64,000 bases of DNA from Sphingosinicella sp. LHD-64 (GTDB taxonomy: Bacteria > Pseudomonadota > Alphaproteobacteria > Sphingomonadales > Sphingomonadaceae), in NCBI RefSeq assembly GCF_031157375.1, contig NZ_JAVIFV010000001.1:62001-126000 (forward strand). Direction: 5' to 3'. Below the pieces are notes generated by a model. That model did no database searches and was not told the origin of the DNA. It saw only the letters and a program-made list of their open reading frames with translations. Numbering within the stretch: position 1 is the stretch's first letter; the number at the start of each line of letters is the position of its first letter. The translations under genes were made by a program, and so were the position numbers. Below are positions 2,131 to 12,175 of the stretch, piece by piece.

Positions 2131-2207
2131 GGCGGAGTAGCTCAGCTGGTTAGAGCAGCGGAATCATAATCCGCGTGTCGGGGGTTCAAGTCCCTCCTCC
2201 GCTACCA
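2131..2207 (+). tRNA. tRNA-Met (anticodon CAT)
   Basis: A complete cloverleaf can be folded: 7-bp acceptor stem (with a G-U first pair), D arm, anticodon stem GCGGA/TCCGC with the loop ATCATAA (CAT at 2165-2167), a GTGTC variable loop, T arm with TTCAAGT, and an encoded CCA. The overall sequence resembles elongator tRNA-Met of alphaproteobacteria; a CAT anticodon could also be tRNA-Ile2 modified with lysidine, which I think less likely. It is not an initiator, because the first acceptor base is paired (G-U). Confidence 0.93.
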
Positions 2208-2471
2208 CCCCGCGAACTGTTTTCGCTACCGCCTAGATCTCGTGCATCCCGTGCGCCATTGCGTCGATCGGGCAAGCATTTGATTGCGCTGATTACAGTC
2301 GTATGTACCCGCATGACTTGGTTCGCGGCGAGCCGAGCCAGATCCGGGACCAACTCGGCAGTCTTTCACTCCCTATGGTTCCAACCGTTCATCTCTCCGG
2401 GCCTATTCTTCCGCGATGCATGGCGTGCGCCGGGGGGAACCGGAACCGCCGACTGGGATGAGGGTCATCGG
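2208..2471. other. Intergenic stretch, no gene seen
   Basis: 264 bp between the tRNA and the beta-lactamase-like gene. It starts directly after the tRNA CCA and holds neither a convincing terminator nor a conserved ORF; it presumably includes the promoter of the downstream gene, but I cannot place it. Confidence 0.4.
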
Positions 2472-3410
2472 ATGCGGTTTTTCGGTTTGCTTGCCTGGCT
2501 GCTTGTCGTTTTCGCCCGGCCCGCTTTGGCCGAGGTGCCACCGGCGCTGCAGCCGCTCGAGCAGCGCCTCGCCGTGCTGGCGACGGAGAATCCGGGGGAA
2601 TTCGGCATCGCCGCGCTGGACCTCGAAACCGGGGCCGTGGTGAGCTTCAACGGTGACCGGCCCTTTCCGATGGCGAGCACGATGAAGATCGCCGTCGCGG
2701 CGGCCTATCTGTCGGAGGTCGATGCCGGGCGCCGCCGCCTTGACGATCCGATCGCCGGCACCACCGCAACTATGCTCCTCGATGCGATGATCACACGCAG
2801 CGACAATCGCGCAACCGACCTGCTGCTCGCCGCGCTCGGCGGACCGGCGGTGGTCGACGGATGGCTGCGCAGGCACCGGCTGGACGGGATCAGGGTCGAC
2901 CGCACGATCGCGCAGCTCCTCGGTGACCGCCGGGATCTGAGGGACATCCGGGATTCGAGCACGCCGACGGCGATGCTCGATCTGCTTCGCCTGATCGACT
3001 CCGGCGATGCGCTGACCCCGGCGAGCCGTTCGCTGCTGCTGGACATGATGCGGCGCTGCGCCACCGGGTCGAACCGCATCCGCGACCTGCTTCCACCGGG
3101 GGTCAGAGTGGAGCACAAGACAGGGACGCTCTCGGGCTATACCGGCGACGTCGGATTCCTGACGCTGCCCGACGGCCGGCGGATCGCCGTCGTGTTCTTC
3201 GCCCGGGGCGGATCGAACCGGCCCGCGGTCATTTCCACGGCGGCGCGCGCCATCTACGATGCTTTCGGTACCCGGGGGCTCGCGGGGCAGCTCGGCGGAC
3301 GTGTCGTCCAGGCCGTTTCGGGTCCGGCTGGCGCCGCCGGCCTTCCACAGAGCGGACCGCCTTCCGCGACCTGCATGCTGGGGGGAAGGGCGGTCCAGGC
3401 GCAGTGCTGA
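2472..3410 (+). CDS. Class A beta-lactamase-like serine hydrolase, lacks omega-loop Glu
   Basis: A 312-residue exported protein (signal peptide residues 1-20, ending ALA). It has the active-site SxxK as STMK (S69-K72), SDN (110-112) and KTG (216-218), so it belongs to the class A beta-lactamase/DD-peptidase fold (beta-lactamase2). The omega loop keeps a VDR start and the following STPTAM, but where class A enzymes have Glu166 and Asn170 this protein reads TIAQLL, so the deacylating glutamate is missing. It may be a DD-peptidase or a poorly turning-over hydrolase rather than a true resistance enzyme. The C-terminal tail after about residue 275 is longer than usual. The start chosen is the ATG that gives the signal peptide. 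Confidence 0.85.
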   Translation: MRFFGLLAWLLVVFARPALAEVPPALQPLEQRLAVLATENPGEFGIAALDLETGAVVSFNGDRPFPMASTMKIAVAAAYLSEVDAGRRRLDDPIAGTTATMLLDAMITRSDNRATDLLLAALGGPAVVDGWLRRHRLDGIRVDRTIAQLLGDRRDLRDIRDSSTPTAMLDLLRLIDSGDALTPASRSLLLDMMRRCATGSNRIRDLLPPGVRVEHKTGTLSGYTGDVGFLTLPDGRRIAVVFFARGGSNRPAVISTAARAIYDAFGTRGLAGQLGGRVVQAVSGPAGAAGLPQSGPPSATCMLGGRAVQAQC

Positions 3411-3650: not shown

Positions 3651-4376
3651 ATGCGTATAATTCTCCTCGAGAACGATACAGGTTTCCACACGTCGCTCGG
3701 CGAACGGCTGCGCAGCCAGGGGCTCGCGGTCGACCTGGCCCGATCGGTCTTCGATTTCTATCGCGAGATGGCGGTGGACGGATACGACGTCGCCGTCATT
3801 GACGTCGATCTCCCCTGCGACAGCGGCCTGGATGTGGTCTCCCGGCTTCGCAGGAAAGACGGCATCGGAATCGTGCTGCTGACCGACCGGGACGCGCCCG
3901 GCGACCGGATCGAAGGCTACCGGAGAGGCGCGGACCTGTGTTTCGCAAAGCCGGTCGACGGCGCCGAACTGGCGGCAGCGCTGAACAGTCTCTCCCGGCG
4001 CCTGGGGCACGCGAACGTGGGCGAACGGGACACGGTGCGATCCACCATGCCATGGCGCCTCGATCCGGACCGGTGGATGCTGGAGGCCCCGAACGGCAAA
4101 TCGGTCAAGCTCAGCACCGCGGAGATGACGGTCGTACGGCGGCTGATCGAGCAGCCCGGGACGGTCGCCTCACGCGGCGAGCTTCGCGCTGCGCTCGGCT
4201 ACGGCCAGGACCGGAACGACGACCAGAAGCTCGACGCCCTGATCAGCAGGCTGAGGCGCAAGATCGAGCGGCAGGCCGGCTGTCCGGCGCCCGTGCAGAC
4301 TCTGCATGGCCGCGGTCACCTCTTCTCCGACGCGATTCGCGTCGAAGTGCGTCTCGCGGCCCGGCGTCCGCTCTAG
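3651..4376 (+). CDS. OmpR-family response regulator, orphan
   Basis: A 241-residue two-component response regulator. The receiver domain (about 1-115) has the acidic pocket E7/D9, phosphoacceptor D51 in AVIDVDLP, T78 and K100 (CFAKP). A winged-helix DNA-binding domain follows (about 130-235) with the recognition region ISRLRRKIE. No histidine kinase is adjacent, so it is an orphan here. Downstream lies an AT-rich intergenic region and then the secreted protein/autotransporter cluster, making that cluster a plausible but unproven target. It shows no frameshift. Confidence 0.9.
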   Translation: MRIILLENDTGFHTSLGERLRSQGLAVDLARSVFDFYREMAVDGYDVAVIDVDLPCDSGLDVVSRLRRKDGIGIVLLTDRDAPGDRIEGYRRGADLCFAKPVDGAELAAALNSLSRRLGHANVGERDTVRSTMPWRLDPDRWMLEAPNGKSVKLSTAEMTVVRRLIEQPGTVASRGELRAALGYGQDRNDDQKLDALISRLRRKIERQAGCPAPVQTLHGRGHLFSDAIRVEVRLAARRPL

Positions 4377-4556: not shown

Positions 4557-4626
4557 GAAGGGGGTGGGATTATCCCTCTTTTCATTTCGTTGCCTGGCCT
4601 CGGGCCAGGGAGAAGGGGGGCTTCGG

Positions 4627-5205
4627 ATGTTCAGACCACGGCTGCAGAGGGAAGACGGCAGGCGTCACCGACACCGCTGTCAATTCGCCCATCTGGCCCT
4701 GCTGGCTGCGCTGGCCGCTGCCAATGGACAAGCCATAGCGCAATCGGCGCCACCTGCGCCGCCGGCCGATACATTCCGGCAACAGGCCGATCAGCTGGGC
4801 GTGCGCCGCTGCGCCAACCTGCTTTCGGCGCTCGGGCAGACCGTGGCCTACGGCTCGACCTACACCGTCCACACGCAGGCGGAGCCCGCAGCGCCCGATG
4901 CGCACGGCGTGCAGGGCGTGGTCGGGATGACCTACGACACGCCCGGCTACAGCGGTCCGGCGGCCGGCATCGTCCTCGCCGCGCCGGTCGGCGAGGGGTG
5001 CGAGGGGCAGGTGGTGCGCGTCGCGCCCTACCAGCGCGCCTGCCCGGATGTGGTCGCCCTGCTGCCGGCGGGCAGCGTCCAGGCCGGCATGCTCTCGGGC
5101 GTGCCGCTCTATACACTCGGCGGCAATCAGGGGCAGGCGCTTCTCGTCGCCAGCGGCGGCGCCTGTGTGGTGGTGACGGTCGCGCAAGGCAAGGACGTCC
5201 GGTGA
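4627..5205 (+). CDS. Secreted protein of unknown function
   Basis: A 192-residue protein with an N-terminal export signal (positive start, hydrophobic core LALLAALAAA, cleavage near AIAQS at about residue 39). The mature part has four cysteines, consistent with two disulfides in the periplasm or outside. I do not recognise a family. The ATG at 4627 is preferred over an in-frame start at 4564 because a purine-rich AAGGGGGG lies 6 nt upstream. It sits directly before the autotransporter gene and may belong to the same transcript. Confidence 0.6.
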   Translation: MFRPRLQREDGRRHRHRCQFAHLALLAALAAANGQAIAQSAPPAPPADTFRQQADQLGVRRCANLLSALGQTVAYGSTYTVHTQAEPAAPDAHGVQGVVGMTYDTPGYSGPAAGIVLAAPVGEGCEGQVVRVAPYQRACPDVVALLPAGSVQAGMLSGVPLYTLGGNQGQALLVASGGACVVVTVAQGKDVR

Positions 5206-5370: not shown

Positions 5371-8300
5371 ATGTTCGCAGTTGAGTCCGCTTCGCAAAAA
5401 GCTCGCCGCGCCGGCCTCGCCGGCAACTGGATCGTCGGCGCAGAGGGGGCAAGCTGGTCGCAGCGGCGCCGGCTGATGGCCGTGCTCCGCCGTGCGCACC
5501 GTGTGCTTGGCATCGACCGCAAGAATCTGGGTGTCGGATCGCTGGGCTTCGGCGGCAGCGCCCGCTCGGTGCTGCTGTCGTCGGCGAGCCCGTCGAGTAT
5601 GATCGGCGGCCTCGCCGCCATCGCCGCGTTTGGAATGGCCGCGCCCGCGCAAGCGCAATACGCCGCTGGCAACGGCACGGCGTCGGGGCCCCAGAGCATT
5701 GCGATCGGAACCACCGGCACCACCGCCACGGCGAGCGGCCAGCGCGGTGTCGCGATCGGAAGCACCGCAACGGCGGGCGGACTCGATTCCGTGGCCCACG
5801 GCACCGCCGCCAACGCAGGCGCCCAGAACGCCGTCGCCATCGGTTTCCAGTCGGTTGCGTCCGCGTTGAACTCCATCAATATTGGCGCGCGCACGGTCCC
5901 GAACACGGGCGCACTTGCGGCTGGGGCCATCGCCCTCGGTACGGATGTGGTGGCATCTCAAGAGCGGTCCATCACGATCGGGGTATTGAGCAGCGCAACG
6001 GGTACGGGCGCCACGGCGATGGGTAACCAAGCCAGAGCCTGGGGCAACCAGTCCATTGCATTCGGTTTAGGCGCACAAGCAGGCGTTCAGGCCAACACGG
6101 CCGTGCCCAACAGCATCGCGATCGGCACCAATTCACGTTCTGGCGCCAATTCCGCCGTCGCGATCGGCACCGCGGCGAACGCATCGGTGGACAATGCCGT
6201 TGCGGTGGGGAATGGCGCCGCTTCGTCGGCACAATATGCAGTGGCTCTTGGCCTGAACGCGGCGGCCTCGGGCGGCGGCGGCGCGGTGGCGATCGGCCAG
6301 ACAGCGATCTCAAGCGGCATCAACACAATTGCGATCGGTGTCCAGGCCAGCGCCACTGGCGGCGGTGGCGATATGGCCCTTGGCACCTTCTCCAGCGCCA
6401 CGGGAGGGAATTCCACTGCGGTCGGTGTCAGCTCCTCGGCCAGCGGCAGCCGTTCGTTCGCCGGCGGCCGCATTGCCAACGCCGCGGGCGCCGATTCTGC
6501 CGCCGTTGGTTTCAACTCCAGCGCGGCGGGGGCCAGCTCGGCGGCGTTCGGCGCTCTCGCCAATGCTTCGGCCGACTTCGCGCTGGCCTTGGGCAATGGG
6601 GCCGTATCGAGCGGAATCGGCTCGGTTGCGACAGGTTCGGGAGCCCAGAGCACGGGCGTCTCCTCCGTGGCGCTCGGCAACAACGCCACCGCGACGGCCG
6701 ACAATGCCGTCGCCGTCGGCCTGGGCACGGTCGCCAATTCCGCCGACGCCGTCGCCATCGGCACCGGCTCGACCGCGACCGGCGGCCGCGCGGTCGCGGT
6801 CGGCGCGGGCAACCTCGCCAGCGGCAACGGCGCGGTGGCGATCGGCGATCCCAACACCGCGACCGGCAACGGCGCGGTGGCGCAGGGCCTGGACAACACC
6901 GCGACCGGCAACGGATCGATCGCGATCGGCAACACCAATTTCGTCGGCGGCGGCGGGCAGGCGGTGAGCACGCCCGGAACGCCCGCTCAGGGCGCGGTCG
7001 GCATCGGCTACCAGAACCGGGTGACCGGCCAGGGCGCCGTGGCGCTGGGCAGCACCAGCAGTGCACTAGCGGCCGGCGCCCTCGCGTTCGGCGATACGGC
7101 GGTCGCCAACACCGACCAGAGCATCGCGATCGGCTCCAATTCGAGCGCGACGGGGGGAAGCGCCATCGCCATCGGGCGGGTCAGCGTCGCGAACGGGACC
7201 AATGCATCGGCATTCGGCGCCGGCGCCACCGCGAACGCCAACAGCGCGCTGGCACTCGGAAACTCGGCCGCCGCCAATAATTTCGGCGACGTGGCGCTCG
7301 GCTCGGGCTCGACCACCACAGCGGCGGTGCAGACCGCCGGCACGACGATCAACGGCACCAACTACAGCTTCGCCGGCACCACACCGACCAGCACGGTGAG
7401 CGTCGGCGCCGCAGGAACCGAGCGCACCATCACCAATGTCGCAGCCGGCCGGATCAGCAACAGCTCGACAGACGCGATCAACGGCTCGCAGCTCTTCGCG
7501 ACCAACCAGGCGGTGGACAGCCTGGGCACGCAGGTGACGCAGAACACCACCGACATCACCAATCTCGAGGCGAGCGCGATCCATTATCTCAGCGTCAACG
7601 ACGGCGGCACGACACAGGGCAATTTCAACAACAACGGCGCGACCGGGACGAATTCGATCGCCATGGGCGTGAATGCGGCTTCGCAGACGGCGGACAGTGT
7701 CGCCATCGGCAATGGTGCCTTCAATCAAGCCTCCGGTGCCGACCGGGCCGCGGTTGCGATTGGTGTTTTGGCGCGCACCGCCCAGACCGGCTCGACAGCG
7801 GTCGGTGGCCAGGCCGCCGCGCTTGGCGTCAACTCGATCGCGCTCGGCGCGTTTGCGTCGGGAACCACCTCCTACGCCATCGCCATCGGCGGCGGGCCAT
7901 CGGCAGGAAATGCCGCCAACGCAACGGGCATCGGGTCCATCGCCATCGGCGGCGGTGGCGGAACCACGCCCACCGGTCTTCCAGCCTCCGCAACCGCAGC
8001 GCGCGCCATCGCCATCGGCCAGAACACGGTCGCTGCGTTCCAGAGCTCGGTTGCCCTGGGCAGCAGGTCTGTGGTCGGAAGCGCATCGTCGCTGGCCATC
8101 GGCGACACCGCCACCACGGGCGCGACGGGCCGGAACGTCGCCATCGGCAATCTGAGCACCGCCGATTCCGCCACGGCCGCCGGCGGCGCGGTGGCGATCG
8201 GACGCTCCAACACCGCCTTCGGCGACGGCGCGGTGTCGATCGGCGATCCGAGCTTTGCCAGCGGCACCGGGGCCTTCACCGGCGGCGCGGACAACATTGC

Positions 8301-11163
8301 CAACAGCGACGGGATCGCGACGGCCACCGTCGCGAACCAGGCCAATGGCGCGGTCGCGATCGGCAACAACAACCGCGCGATCGGCCAGGGCAGCGTCGCG
8401 CTCGGCAACGGCTCGACCGCCGGCGCGGCCGGCCTTGCCGGCAATGTCGCGATCGGCGACGGCGCGGTCGCCACGGCGAGCGCGGGCGATGTCGCGCTCG
8501 GCTCGGGCAGCACGACCCTGGCGGCGGTGGCGACGGCCGGCACGACGATCGACGGCACCAACTACGCCTTTGCCGGCACCACACCGACGAGCACGGTCAG
8601 CGTCGGGACGGCCGGAGCGGAGCGGACGATCACCAACGTCGCCGCCGGCCGGATCAGCGGGAGCTCGACCGACGCGATCAACGGCTCGCAGCTCTTCGCG
8701 ACCAACCAGGCGGTCGAGGCGCTGAGCAGCACCGTCCAGGCGACCGCCATCCACTATTACAGCGTCAACGACGGCGGCGTGCCGCAGGGCAATTTCAACA
8801 ATGACGGCGCGACCGGCGCGGCCTCGCTCGCCGCGGGCGTGGGCGCGTCGTCCTCCGGCATCCAGTCCACCGCCGTCGGCAACGGCGCCACTGCGCAGGG
8901 CCTGCAGAGCATCGCCCTGGGCTACAATGCCCGCGTGCTGGAGACCGTGCCGAATGCCAGCGCGCGCGGCATCGTCATCGGCGATTCGAGCACGATCGAC
9001 AACAGCTTCAACTCCTGGATCTTCGGCCAGAGCAACAGCGTCACCGGATCGACCCAGGCCGGCGTGCTGGGCGGGTTCACCACCGTGACGGGGAGCCAGG
9101 GCATCCTGGCGCAGGGCTCGAACAACACCATTACGGGCACCCAGGGCGCCAACGTCATCGGCGTGTTCAACACGGCCAGCAACACGCAGGGCGCCAGCAT
9201 CATCGGCGCGCTCAACGGCATCACCGGGGGCGCGAACAACAGCATCATCGGCACCGGCAACACGCTCGATGCCGCCAGCGGCAACTTTGTCGGCGGCTTC
9301 AACAACACGTTCGGCAGCGGCCTCACCAACAGCTTCGTGTTCGCGAGCGGCGGCACCACCGCGGCGGGCGTCCAGAACGGCGTGCTGATCGGCGCGGGCG
9401 GCACGCTCGGCGCCAACGACGCCGTCGCCCTCGGCACGGGGGCGCAGGCGACGATCCTGGGATCGCTGGCGCTCGGCGCCGGCTCGGTCTCGAACCGCGC
9501 GCTCGCCCCCGCCGTCGGCCAGATCCCGGCCGGCACCGGCTTCGTGCCCTACAATACGAGCGACCAGGTCCTGCTCGGCGCGGTCTCGGTCGGCAATGCC
9601 GGCGCCTATCGGCAGATCACCAATGTCGCCGACGGCACCCAGGCGCAGGATGCGGTGACGATCCGCCAGCTCGCCAATTCGCTCGCCTCGTTCGCGGTGA
9701 CGCCGACGCTCTATTTCCACGCCAATTCGGCGGCCGCGGACTCGCTCGCGGTCGGGGCGGAATCGATCGCGATCGGCCCGACCACGGTGGTCAACGGCGA
9801 CAACGGCATCGGCATGGGCAATGGCGCGATCGTCCAGGCGACCGCGCCGGGCGGCACCGCGATCGGCCAGAACGCGCAGGTCAGCCAGGCCGACGCCGTC
9901 GCCCTCGGCACCAGTTCGGTCGCCGACGGCATCCAGTCGATCGCGATCGGTGCCGGGGCCAATGCCAGCCGTTCCGGCAGCGTCGCCCTTGGTGCCGGCG
10001 CCGAGACCAATGTCGGCTCCGAGACCGGCTACACCGCCTATGGCCTGACCGCACCGCAGAATTCGGCCGGCGAAGTCTCGGTCGGCACCGCTGGCGCCGA
10101 GCGGAAGGTCACCAATGTAGCGGCGGGCTCGGCACCGACCGATGCGGTCAACGTCAGCCAGCTTCAGGCAGTCGCGCAGAACGCCACCACCGCAATCACC
10201 AACCTCGACGGGCGGGTTACGACCGTCGAGAACCGGGTCACGACAGTCGAGAACAACGTTACCAATCTCGGCGACAGCGTTGCGAACAGCTTCGGCGGCG
10301 GCTCCACCTACGATCCGACGACGGGCACCGTGACGACCGTGCTGAACGTGGGCGGCAACACCTACAACAACGTCAACGACGCGCTGCAGTCGCTGAACCA
10401 GACGGCAAGCGCCGGCTGGAACATCCAGGCCAATGGCGGCCCGGCGACGAACGTTGCGTCGAACGGCACGCTCAACGTGACCGCGGGCTCCAACACGGTG
10501 GTGACGCTGAGCGGCAACCAGCTCCAGGTCGCCGTCGTCGACAATCCGACGTTCAGCGGCATGGTGACCGCCAATGGCGGACTCACCGTCGGCGCCAACA
10601 CGACGGTGAACATGGGCGGCAATGTCGTCCAGAACGTCGCGGCCGGCGCGGTGAACGCCGCCTCGACCGACGCGGTCAACGGCTCGCAGCTCTATCAGGT
10701 GCAGCAGTTGGCCAGCAATTCGGTGCAATATGACGCCGACGGCAATTCGGTGACGTTCAACCCCGGCGGATCGGCGGTGACGCTGCAGAATGTCGCGGCC
10801 GGCGTCGCCCCGACCGACGCGGTCAACGTCCAGCAGCTCAACGACGGGCTGGCGAGCACATTGGCGAGCGCCAACGCCTATACCGACCAGCGCCTCGCCG
10901 CCTTCCAGTTCGACCTCACCGACATGCGCCGCGATGCGAATGCCGGCGTGGCCGGTGCCCTGGCGGCTTCGGCGCTGCCGCAGGCGTTCGAGCCCGGCCG
11001 CGGGATGATCGCGTTCGGCGCCGGTACCTTCCAGGGCCAGTCCGCCTTCGCCCTCGGCCTCTCGCGGGTGATGGACGACGGGCGCACCGTCGTCCGCGCC
11101 GGAGCGACCTACGACACCCAGCAGCGGGCCGGAGCGAATGTCGGTATCGGCTACTCCTTCTGA
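5371..11163 (+). CDS. Trimeric autotransporter adhesin (YadA-like)
   Basis: A 1930-residue type Vc secreted adhesin. A long leader of about 95 residues ends at AAPAQAQ. The passenger consists of many YadA-head repeats (AVAIG/ALGxxAxAxG, about 14-15 residues each), interrupted by necks of the type TDAINGSQLF (about 7466-7515 and 8666-8715) and later necks near 10138, 10668 and 10810. A coiled-coil stalk with VTTVENRV-type heptads lies near 10205-10265. The last 70 residues form the YadA membrane anchor, ending GIGYSF. The ATG at 5371 follows GAAAGAGGA; an in-frame start at 5224 is possible but adds an unconvincing sequence. It is followed at 36 bp by BamE-like and Skp-like genes. It probably mediates surface attachment or autoaggregation. 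Confidence 0.93.
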   Translation: MFAVESASQKARRAGLAGNWIVGAEGASWSQRRRLMAVLRRAHRVLGIDRKNLGVGSLGFGGSARSVLLSSASPSSMIGGLAAIAAFGMAAPAQAQYAAGNGTASGPQSIAIGTTGTTATASGQRGVAIGSTATAGGLDSVAHGTAANAGAQNAVAIGFQSVASALNSINIGARTVPNTGALAAGAIALGTDVVASQERSITIGVLSSATGTGATAMGNQARAWGNQSIAFGLGAQAGVQANTAVPNSIAIGTNSRSGANSAVAIGTAANASVDNAVAVGNGAASSAQYAVALGLNAAASGGGGAVAIGQTAISSGINTIAIGVQASATGGGGDMALGTFSSATGGNSTAVGVSSSASGSRSFAGGRIANAAGADSAAVGFNSSAAGASSAAFGALANASADFALALGNGAVSSGIGSVATGSGAQSTGVSSVALGNNATATADNAVAVGLGTVANSADAVAIGTGSTATGGRAVAVGAGNLASGNGAVAIGDPNTATGNGAVAQGLDNTATGNGSIAIGNTNFVGGGGQAVSTPGTPAQGAVGIGYQNRVTGQGAVALGSTSSALAAGALAFGDTAVANTDQSIAIGSNSSATGGSAIAIGRVSVANGTNASAFGAGATANANSALALGNSAAANNFGDVALGSGSTTTAAVQTAGTTINGTNYSFAGTTPTSTVSVGAAGTERTITNVAAGRISNSSTDAINGSQLFATNQAVDSLGTQVTQNTTDITNLEASAIHYLSVNDGGTTQGNFNNNGATGTNSIAMGVNAASQTADSVAIGNGAFNQASGADRAAVAIGVLARTAQTGSTAVGGQAAALGVNSIALGAFASGTTSYAIAIGGGPSAGNAANATGIGSIAIGGGGGTTPTGLPASATAARAIAIGQNTVAAFQSSVALGSRSVVGSASSLAIGDTATTGATGRNVAIGNLSTADSATAAGGAVAIGRSNTAFGDGAVSIGDPSFASGTGAFTGGADNIANSDGIATATVANQANGAVAIGNNNRAIGQGSVALGNGSTAGAAGLAGNVAIGDGAVATASAGDVALGSGSTTLAAVATAGTTIDGTNYAFAGTTPTSTVSVGTAGAERTITNVAAGRISGSSTDAINGSQLFATNQAVEALSSTVQATAIHYYSVNDGGVPQGNFNNDGATGAASLAAGVGASSSGIQSTAVGNGATAQGLQSIALGYNARVLETVPNASARGIVIGDSSTIDNSFNSWIFGQSNSVTGSTQAGVLGGFTTVTGSQGILAQGSNNTITGTQGANVIGVFNTASNTQGASIIGALNGITGGANNSIIGTGNTLDAASGNFVGGFNNTFGSGLTNSFVFASGGTTAAGVQNGVLIGAGGTLGANDAVALGTGAQATILGSLALGAGSVSNRALAPAVGQIPAGTGFVPYNTSDQVLLGAVSVGNAGAYRQITNVADGTQAQDAVTIRQLANSLASFAVTPTLYFHANSAAADSLAVGAESIAIGPTTVVNGDNGIGMGNGAIVQATAPGGTAIGQNAQVSQADAVALGTSSVADGIQSIAIGAGANASRSGSVALGAGAETNVGSETGYTAYGLTAPQNSAGEVSVGTAGAERKVTNVAAGSAPTDAVNVSQLQAVAQNATTAITNLDGRVTTVENRVTTVENNVTNLGDSVANSFGGGSTYDPTTGTVTTVLNVGGNTYNNVNDALQSLNQTASAGWNIQANGGPATNVASNGTLNVTAGSNTVVTLSGNQLQVAVVDNPTFSGMVTANGGLTVGANTTVNMGGNVVQNVAAGAVNAASTDAVNGSQLYQVQQLASNSVQYDADGNSVTFNPGGSAVTLQNVAAGVAPTDAVNVQQLNDGLASTLASANAYTDQRLAAFQFDLTDMRRDANAGVAGALAASALPQAFEPGRGMIAFGAGTFQGQSAFALGLSRVMDDGRTVVRAGATYDTQQRAGANVGIGYSF
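7308..7516 (+). repeat. Internal duplication in adhesin, copy 1
   Basis: This segment encodes the end of a head block and a neck (GSGSTT to ATNQAV). It recurs with high DNA identity exactly 1200 bp downstream at 8508-8716, implying duplication of a 400-residue module. Confidence 0.8.
8508..8716 (+). repeat. Internal duplication in adhesin, copy 2
   Basis: Second copy of the head-end/neck segment at 7308-7516, offset by exactly 1200 bp. The similarity continues more weakly into the following SVNDGG-QGNFNN motif of each module. Confidence 0.8.
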
Positions 11164-11199
11164 TGCGCCGCCAACCCACGCCAACCGGAGGATGAATCC

Positions 11200-11625
11200 A
11201 TGAACCTCAGGACGCTCTTCATTGCTTCTTTCGTCGGCGCGGGCCTCGTCGCGCCGACCGCTGCCCCGGCCGAGGACGATACCGGCTATGTGGGCACGAT
11301 CGATCCGTCGGCCTTTCGCGAGACACCGCGCGAGCGCGACCGGCTCGGCGCGACCGTCGATCCGGCCGCGGTCCGGATGATCACGCCCGGGATCGACAAG
11401 TTCAGCATCTACCGGCTGATCGGTCCGCCCCATTTCAACGAGGCGATCGCGCGGCGGTGGAACTACATCCTTGTCTTCCCGTCGGCGTCGGGAAGCGAGG
11501 AACGGCTACGCTGCCGGATGGAGATCCGTTTCGCCCCGCCGGCGCGCGGCCGCTACAACGTGACCGTCTCCGAGGTCGTCTGGCAGGACCGGTCCTGCGC
11601 GGAGCGGGTTGCGGCGGCCGGCTGA
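11200..11625 (+). CDS. BamE/SmpA-OmlA-like periplasmic protein
   Basis: A 141-residue exported protein with a signal peptide (about residues 1-24). The core (about residues 60-112) has the BamE-like pattern: a GIDKF turn, a helix ending RLIGPPHFNEA, then WNYIL and a beta strand RMEIRF. BamE assists the beta-barrel assembly machine. Unlike classical BamE it has no lipobox cysteine after the signal, so it would be soluble in the periplasm. An AACCGGAGGATGAATCC leader gives a good ribosome site. Its position between the autotransporter and a Skp-like gene suggests a dedicated role in assembling that adhesin; this is inference. Confidence 0.65.
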   Translation: MNLRTLFIASFVGAGLVAPTAAPAEDDTGYVGTIDPSAFRETPRERDRLGATVDPAAVRMITPGIDKFSIYRLIGPPHFNEAIARRWNYILVFPSASGSEERLRCRMEIRFAPPARGRYNVTVSEVVWQDRSCAERVAAAG

Positions 11626-11644
11626 TTGGGCGAGAGGCGGTGGC

Positions 11645-12175
11645 ATGCGTCTGATCGGGCTCGCCGCCGCTCTCCTTCTTGCCTGCGCCGGCACCGCCGC
11701 GCCGGCACAGACGTTCGGCGCGCCCATCCCGGGAGTGTGCCTGTTCTCCAAGACGGCCGCCATCGGCGCTTCGCAGGCAGGCCAGTCGCTGCAGGCGCAG
11801 ATCCGGCAAATGCAGGCGTCGCTGTCCGGCGATCTTGCCCGGCAGCGCGCCGCCCTGGAGCAGCAGCGCCGGCAGATCGAGGCGCGGCAGAACGCCATCG
11901 CGCCGGTCGAGTATCAGCGCCAGCTGGCGGCGCTGGCCCAGCAGGCACAGGCTCTCGAGCAGCAGCAGAATGCGCGCTTCATCGCTGCCCAGCAACGCGG
12001 GCAGCAGCAGATCGACCGGGTGCTCAATGAAGCGCTCGGCCGCGTCGTGACACGCGCCGCGTGCAGCCTGGTGCTCGAACGCGACACTGCCTATGGCTGG
12101 AACAACGAGATGGACATCACGGTCGCCGTCACGCGTGAAGTGGACGCGGCGTTGCAGCAGGTCAGCCTGCAATGA
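11645..12175 (+). CDS. Skp/OmpH-like periplasmic chaperone
   Basis: A 176-residue exported protein (signal residues 1-22, ending APAQ). The mature N-terminus is a short beta strand (VCLFSKTAAI) followed by about 100 residues of Gln/Arg/Ala-rich coiled coil (LEQQRRQIEARQ, LAQQAQALEQQQ) and a C-terminal strand region, the architecture of Skp/OmpH trimeric chaperones that hold unfolded outer-membrane proteins. It follows the BamE-like gene by 19 bp and is probably in the same operon as the trimeric autotransporter. The ATG at 11645 is chosen because it begins the signal peptide. Confidence 0.75.
   Translation: MRLIGLAAALLLACAGTAAPAQTFGAPIPGVCLFSKTAAIGASQAGQSLQAQIRQMQASLSGDLARQRAALEQQRRQIEARQNAIAPVEYQRQLAALAQQAQALEQQQNARFIAAQQRGQQQIDRVLNEALGRVVTRAACSLVLERDTAYGWNNEMDITVAVTREVDAALQQVSLQ

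What the first reader, a model, noticed from the sequence alone, without database searches (positions are those of the whole stretch)
5371..12175. Trimeric autotransporter encoded with its own BamE-like and Skp-like factors
A 1930-residue YadA-like adhesin is followed at 36 bp by a BamE/OmlA-fold protein without a lipobox and then at 19 bp by a Skp/OmpH-like coiled-coil protein. BamE and Skp are general outer-membrane biogenesis factors; dedicated copies behind one adhesin suggest a private assembly cassette. That the BamE-like protein would be soluble rather than a lipoprotein makes it more unusual. The operon reading and the dedicated role are inference.
Basis: partly seen in the sequence, partly recalled or inferred. 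Interest (0 to 1): 0.72.

Follow-up and report, generated by a model that had tools for sequence, protein, structure and literature searches.

The report
Adhesin operon with its own helpers
A giant surface adhesin gene sits in a conserved four-gene cassette that also encodes an exported protein of unknown function, a likely clamp for the adhesin's membrane anchor (similar to the known TpgA protein) and a private copy of the chaperone Skp, so some bacteria seem to carry dedicated assembly helpers for one adhesin.

Summary
The trio is real and at the stated coordinates: a 1930-aa trimeric autotransporter adhesin (TAA), a 141-aa BamE-fold protein 36 bp downstream, and a 176-aa Skp/OmpH protein 19 bp further on. 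Two corrections. First, the BamE-like protein is closest to the N-terminal domain of TpgA, the periplasmic partner of the Acinetobacter adhesin AtaA, not to BamE: 66 against 18.6 bits on matched HMMs; its model fits TpgA-N (9vnj) at Z 10.5 against 8.8 for the best BamE; it has two conserved cysteines that canonical BamE lacks. TpgA is itself soluble, so the missing lipobox is not odd; TpgA's OmpA-like domain is absent here. The Skp copy forms its own clade beside an intact canonical skp; other Skp paralogues of this family sit behind DUF3739 giant proteins or other TAAs. New variant of a known kind (SadBA, AtaA-TpgA); functions are inferred.

The parts
4627..5205 (+). Upstream gene X: exported protein of about 192 aa with four conserved cysteines and no recognised family (open frame from GTG at 4564; ATG at 4627 taken as start)
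   Evidence: No family match passed any curated cut-off in Pfam or NCBIfam. Conserved directly upstream of the TAA in G651, G499, G689 and Caulobacter G832. Strong HMM matches only in the same 4 of 398 family genomes that carry the trio. AlphaFold model pLDDT 69, no Foldseek match at E <= 0.001.
5371..11163 (+). Trimeric autotransporter adhesin, 1930 aa: long N-terminal extension plus signal peptide, YadA head repeats, stalk segments, YadA anchor barrel
   Evidence: Pfam; anchor aligns to Hia and AtaA barrels in the PDB; N-terminal signature SQRRRLM..LR.AHRVLG shared by all readable cassette TAAs.
11200..11625 (+). TpgA-N-like protein, 141 aa, BamE fold, predicted soluble periplasmic, without the OmpA-like domain of TpgA
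   Evidence: Pfam BamE above cut-off; NCBIfam TpgA weak and far below cut-off; best PDB sequence match 9vnj_B TpgA-N; HMM competition; AlphaFold model pLDDT 82 with VIA Z 10.5 to 9vnj_B.
11645..12175 (+). Skp/OmpH-like periplasmic chaperone, 176 aa, dedicated paralogue
   Evidence: Pfam OmpH above cut-off; best PDB sequence match 4kqt OmpH-like chaperone, E 3.6e-17; separate clade from the canonical Skp.

Best explanation
This is a four-gene adhesin export and anchoring cassette: X - TAA - TpgA-N-like - Skp-like. Shown: gene order, spacing, conservation, folds and closest relatives. Inferred: the TAA is secreted through Sec and the general BAM machinery. The dedicated Skp-like protein is made in step with it and holds the very long unfolded chains in the periplasm until the trimeric barrel is inserted. 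The TpgA-N-like protein then binds the periplasmic face of the 12-stranded trimeric barrel, one copy per subunit, and locks the anchor in the outer membrane, as TpgA-N does for AtaA; lacking the OmpA-like domain, it would not tie the anchor to peptidoglycan. X is an exported accessory factor of unknown role in the position that SadB holds relative to SadA. The cassette belongs to unusually large TAAs and is patchily distributed, probably by horizontal transfer.
For: Trio in six genomes with TAA-to-BamE-like gaps of 31-38 bp and, in the five with an intact BamE-like frame, BamE-like-to-Skp gaps of 16-19 bp. X present at all five loci with a readable upstream side, the window included. In 398 family genomes strong hits for X and for the solo BamE-like protein fall in the same four genomes; strong trio-Skp hits in 279 genomes fall in those four too. 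Trio BamE-like proteins score 60-73 bits on a TpgA-N HMM built without trio members against 13-20 bits on canonical BamE from the same bacterial family; VIA Z 10.5 (rmsd 2.3, 90 residues) to TpgA-N against 8.8 to Neisseria BamE. The TpgA lysine K64 that bridges AtaA D3601 aligns with K67 here, and the anchor keeps the aspartate (D1902). TpgA loss lowers surface AtaA (PMC8151025) and TpgA-N strengthens the anchor in simulation (PMC13082670). Skp, not SurA, stabilises YadA on its way into mitochondrial outer membranes (PMC5159795). TAAs with a helper are longer: median 2790 against 859 aa, p 8e-6.
Against: No expression, interaction or deletion data. The second AtaA-TpgA salt bridge is not kept (D65 of TpgA is F68 here), and the anchor charges also occur in Hia, so they do not prove binding. 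80 of 92 TAA loci examined have no helper, and YadA biogenesis was unaffected by skp deletion in Yersinia (PMC8151025). The length comparison ignores phylogeny. X has no assignable function.
Confidence: 0.6

Rival explanations
1. One reading: the small protein is a private BamE that joins or modifies the BAM complex so that it inserts this adhesin.
For: BamE fold by prediction and Pfam BamE above cut-off; canonical BamE is encoded elsewhere in the genome, so this would be a second, specialised copy.
Against: Closer in sequence and structure to TpgA-N than to canonical BamE; has the TpgA-type cysteine pair; no lipid anchor. bamE deletion in E. coli did not stop SadA or YadA assembly, though SadA-dependent biofilm fell (PMC7940764).
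Confidence: 0.15
2. The genes only travel together: the cassette is inherited or transferred as a block and the two small proteins do general envelope work or are dispensable.
For: Patchy distribution; most TAAs do without helpers; the BamE-like frame is broken in G499 while the TAA frame is open.
Against: Fixed order and spacing across an order boundary (Caulobacter), three independent subfamilies restricted to these loci, and separate TAA-Skp and TAA-TpgA pairs in other genomes.
Confidence: 0.17
3. The Skp-like protein acts as an assembly or anchoring partner of the mature trimer rather than as a transit chaperone, together with the TpgA-N-like protein substituting for TpgA's missing OmpA domain.
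For: In the loci examined, stand-alone BamE domains of the trio subfamily are always followed by Skp, whereas BamE-OmpA fusions are not. This is correlation only.
Against: Skp homology is to a holdase family. A TAA with a solo BamE domain and no Skp exists (S. aerolata plasmid), as do TAAs with Skp and no BamE.
Confidence: 0.08

Closest known systems
AtaA-TpgA operon of Acinetobacter sp. Tol 5
   Same: Giant TAA followed by a periplasmic protein whose N-terminal BamE-fold domain (TpgA-N, PDB 9vnj) is the closest known structure to the protein here.
   Different: TpgA carries a C-terminal OmpA-like peptidoglycan-binding domain, absent here; no Skp and no X gene are described for AtaA-TpgA in the passages read here.
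SadBA operon of Salmonella
   Same: A dedicated export factor encoded directly upstream of the TAA (PMC3953254), the position of gene X here.
   Different: SadB is a trimeric inner-membrane lipoprotein; X has no detectable sequence similarity to any solved structure and no conserved lipobox cysteine.
Canonical Skp (OmpH) encoded next to BamA
   Same: Same family by Pfam and by match to 4kqt.
   Different: Separate, fully supported clade with its own motifs (TFG.PI.G.CL, ERD..YGWNN.MDIT); located behind a TAA; a canonical copy is also present in the genome.
BamE subunit of the BAM complex
   Same: Fold.
   Different: No lipobox, two extra conserved cysteines, weaker sequence and structure match than TpgA-N.

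Membership tests
Trimeric autotransporter adhesin (type Vc) | C-terminal YadA anchor domain with head and stalk repeats | tested here: met
Trimeric autotransporter adhesin (type Vc) | Forms a homotrimer displayed on the cell surface | not testable with these tools
   Needs experiment
TpgA | Encoded directly downstream of a TAA | tested here: met
TpgA | TpgA-N domain of BamE fold | tested here: met
   66 bits on a TpgA-N HMM; VIA Z 10.5 to 9vnj_B; NCBIfam TpgA match only over positions 56-112
TpgA | C-terminal OmpA-like peptidoglycan-binding domain, full-length match to NCBIfam NF047726 | tested here: not met
   Protein ends after the N domain; 19 bits against a cut-off of 350
TpgA | Binds the TAA anchor | not testable with these tools
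BamE | BamE fold / Pfam BamE | tested here: met
BamE | Lipoprotein signal (lipobox cysteine) | tested here: not met
   No cysteine in the signal region; the 15 canonical BamE sequences compared all have it
BamE | Part of the BAM complex | not testable with these tools
   Needs experiment
Skp/OmpH | OmpH family match above curated cut-off, exported | tested here: met
   42.9 bits against 32.4; 4kqt E 3.6e-17; signal peptide judged by eye
Skp/OmpH | Trimeric holdase for outer-membrane proteins | not testable with these tools
   Needs experiment
SadB (for gene X) | Sequence or fold similarity to SadB | tested here: inconclusive
   No credible PDB sequence match; medium-confidence model without a clear fold match

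The most novel reading that the evidence does not exclude
Alphaproteobacteria evolved substrate-dedicated Skp chaperones for giant type V surface proteins: separate Skp clades are encoded directly behind TAAs and behind DUF3739 filamentous-haemagglutinin-like proteins. In this cassette the adhesin has a complete private route: its own transit chaperone, anchor clamp and an unknown exported factor X. That would break the view of Skp as only a general, unspecific holdase.
Probability: 0.3. Interest if true: 0.75.

Novelty: new variant of a known kind. Interest (0 to 1): 0.57.

Why it matters
Only two TAA-specific helper proteins were met in the papers read here (SadB, TpgA). This cassette offers a natural test of whether very long adhesins need their own Skp and whether a TpgA-N domain works without its peptidoglycan tether. 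It also supplies a new, compact candidate partner for TAA anchors.

Tried and rejected
Reading the protein as a private BamE: weakened by the HMM competition and the structural comparison. Placing the single domain firmly in a tree: the BamE/TpgA-N tree is short and weakly supported inside, so only the HMM and fold comparisons are used. Using the anchor charges as proof of binding: rejected, because the Hia anchor keeps them too. Assigning a fold to X: best VIA Z 6.0 to a START-like protein and 5.4 to MucB, too low to mean anything. Plasmid search with the Skp-like protein: no match. Searching 385 genomes of the class with the BamE-like alignment gave only the window's own genome, so the cassette is rare outside its family. 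Promoter and terminator scans were uninformative.

Full report
Observation. The three genes are as described. The TAA frame runs 5371-11163 (1930 aa), the BamE-like frame 11200-11625 (141 aa) and the Skp-like frame 11645-12175 (176 aa), separated by 36 and 19 bp. Pfam finds YadA head and stalk repeats, a BamE domain and an OmpH domain, the last two above their curated cut-offs; the YadA anchor matches at E 2.2e-15. The genome has two other TAA anchors; no BamE-like or Skp-like protein was found in the sequence held around them.

Synteny. A sequence search with the BamE-like protein found a 72%-identical homologue in Caulobacter sp. UNC279MFTsu5.1 and a 66%-identical one in a genome of the same genus, G013. 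Both lie between a TAA and a Skp-like gene. A profile search of 398 genomes of the family added G689, G651 and G499 with the same arrangement. In all six the TAA-to-BamE-like gap is 31-38 bp and, in the five with an intact BamE-like frame, the next gap is 16-19 bp. In G499 the BamE-like frame is broken. A sample of 385 genomes from the whole class gave no further case, so the cassette is rare and patchy.

The missed fourth gene. Directly upstream of the TAA lies an exported protein, X (4627-5205), with four conserved cysteines. It is present upstream of the TAA in G651, G499, G689 and the Caulobacter (50-60% identity); G013's contig ends before that point. A search of the 398 family genomes gave strong matches only in the window genome, G651, G499 and G689, the same four that have the trio in that sample. 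Drawing the same four of 398 by chance would have a probability near 1e-9, ignoring that two of them share a genus. Two weak X-like matches exist: one in G488, and one in G054 a few kilobases downstream of a TAA. X has no recognised family, no credible PDB sequence match, and a medium-confidence model (pLDDT 69) without a meaningful fold match.

What the BamE-like protein is. The best PDB sequence match is TpgA-N in complex with the AtaA anchor, 9vnj_B, although weak (E 0.0064). An HMM built from BamE-OmpA fusion proteins found behind other TAAs, without any trio member, scores P0002 at 66 bits; an HMM of 15 canonical BamE sequences from the same bacterial family scores it at 18.6 bits. All TAA-linked domains aligned share two cysteines (C105 and C133 here) that canonical BamE sequences lack, apart from their lipobox cysteine. 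The AlphaFold model (pLDDT 82) matches 9vnj_B with Z 10.5, rmsd 2.3 over 90 residues, Neisseria BamE with Z 8.8 and E. coli BamE with about 7. Foldseek alone ranks Neisseria BamE first by E-value, with 9vnj_B third but with the highest TM-scores. So the fold is BamE-like and the closest relative is TpgA-N. TpgA-N is described as a soluble periplasmic protein (PMC13082670), so solubility is expected. TpgA's OmpA-like domain is missing, so this is not a TpgA by definition.

Interface residues. The paper on 9vnj names two salt bridges, AtaA D3601 with TpgA K64 and AtaA K3576 with TpgA D65 (PMC13082670). By alignment, K64 corresponds to K67 here, conserved in the trio and in most TpgA-N domains, and D3601 to D1902 of the TAA; K3576 corresponds to R1877, but D65 to F68. 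The correspondence of residue numbers is my inference. The anchor charges are also found in Hia, so they are compatible with binding but do not prove it.

What the Skp-like protein is. It is a true OmpH family member whose closest solved relative is 4kqt. In every trio genome a second, more canonical Skp is encoded elsewhere; in the window genome it lies next to an Omp85/BamA-like open frame (that frame was identified by eye). The trio Skp proteins form one fully supported clade on a long stem. Other Skp paralogues of the family are found behind DUF3739 filamentous-haemagglutinin-like proteins: in the window genome itself (C4:343684), G651 and G543, and in G681, G525, G033 and G654 by similarity search. 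Two further TAAs, in G757 and G577, are followed directly by a Skp-like gene without a BamE-like gene. Skp-like genes behind giant type V-like proteins are therefore a recurring arrangement in this family.

How common helpers are. Of 92 TAA loci examined, 80 have neither a BamE-like, a Skp-like nor an OmpA-like gene nearby. TAAs with a helper are longer than those without (median 2790 against 859 aa, Mann-Whitney p 8e-6, 11 against 81). The sample favours high-scoring anchors and ignores relatedness, so this is suggestive only.

Mechanism. The best-supported reading is a cassette in which the Skp-like protein keeps long adhesin chains soluble in the periplasm, BAM inserts the trimeric barrel, and the TpgA-N-like protein clamps the barrel from below. 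Shown: order, conservation, folds and relationships. Inferred: co-transcription, chaperone specificity, the clamp and any role for X. Published support for the parts: TpgA loss lowers surface AtaA and SadB aids SadA (PMC8151025, PMC3953254); Skp stabilises YadA in a mitochondrial system (PMC5159795). Published evidence against a need: skp deletion did not affect YadA in Yersinia (PMC8151025), and bamE deletion did not stop SadA or YadA assembly in E. coli (PMC7940764).

Novelty. TAA operons with dedicated helpers are known (SadBA, AtaA-TpgA). I found no paper describing a Skp gene in such an operon, a stand-alone TpgA-N domain, or gene X, within an open-access library only. I rate it a new variant of a known kind.

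Noticed in passing
G000:C4:343684-344037 (L015, L161), also G651 (L159), G543 (L160), G681 (L183), G525 (L184), G033 (L185), G654 (L186): Skp paralogues of a separate clade lie directly behind DUF3739 filamentous-haemagglutinin-like giant proteins, a second case of a Skp tied to a type V-like substrate.
   Followed up: partly
G757 (L110, L168) and G577 (L181): A TAA followed directly by a Skp-like gene with no BamE-like gene between; in G757 the TAA shares the N-terminal signature of the cassette TAAs.
   Followed up: partly
L164 (G689), L167 (G540): TAAs with a TpgA-type partner have a different conserved exported gene upstream; the G689 one is a DUF4019 protein.
   Followed up: partly
L022 (Sphingomonas aerolata plasmid, NZ_CP098764.1): TAA and a stand-alone BamE-like gene followed by a Sel1-repeat protein instead of Skp, on a mobilizable plasmid with transposase and recombinase genes nearby.
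   Followed up: partly
G054:C13 (L062, L176): A TAA followed by DUF2827 genes and then a weak X-like protein.
   Followed up: no
L157 (G499): The BamE-like frame between an open TAA and a Skp-like gene is broken into two frames.
   Followed up: no
window 3651-4376 (+): OmpR-type response regulator (receiver plus Trans_reg_C domain) upstream of the cassette; no partner kinase was looked for.
   Followed up: no
window 2175-3410 (+): Protein with motifs of a class A beta-lactamase (STMK, SDN, KTG) seen by eye only.
   Followed up: no
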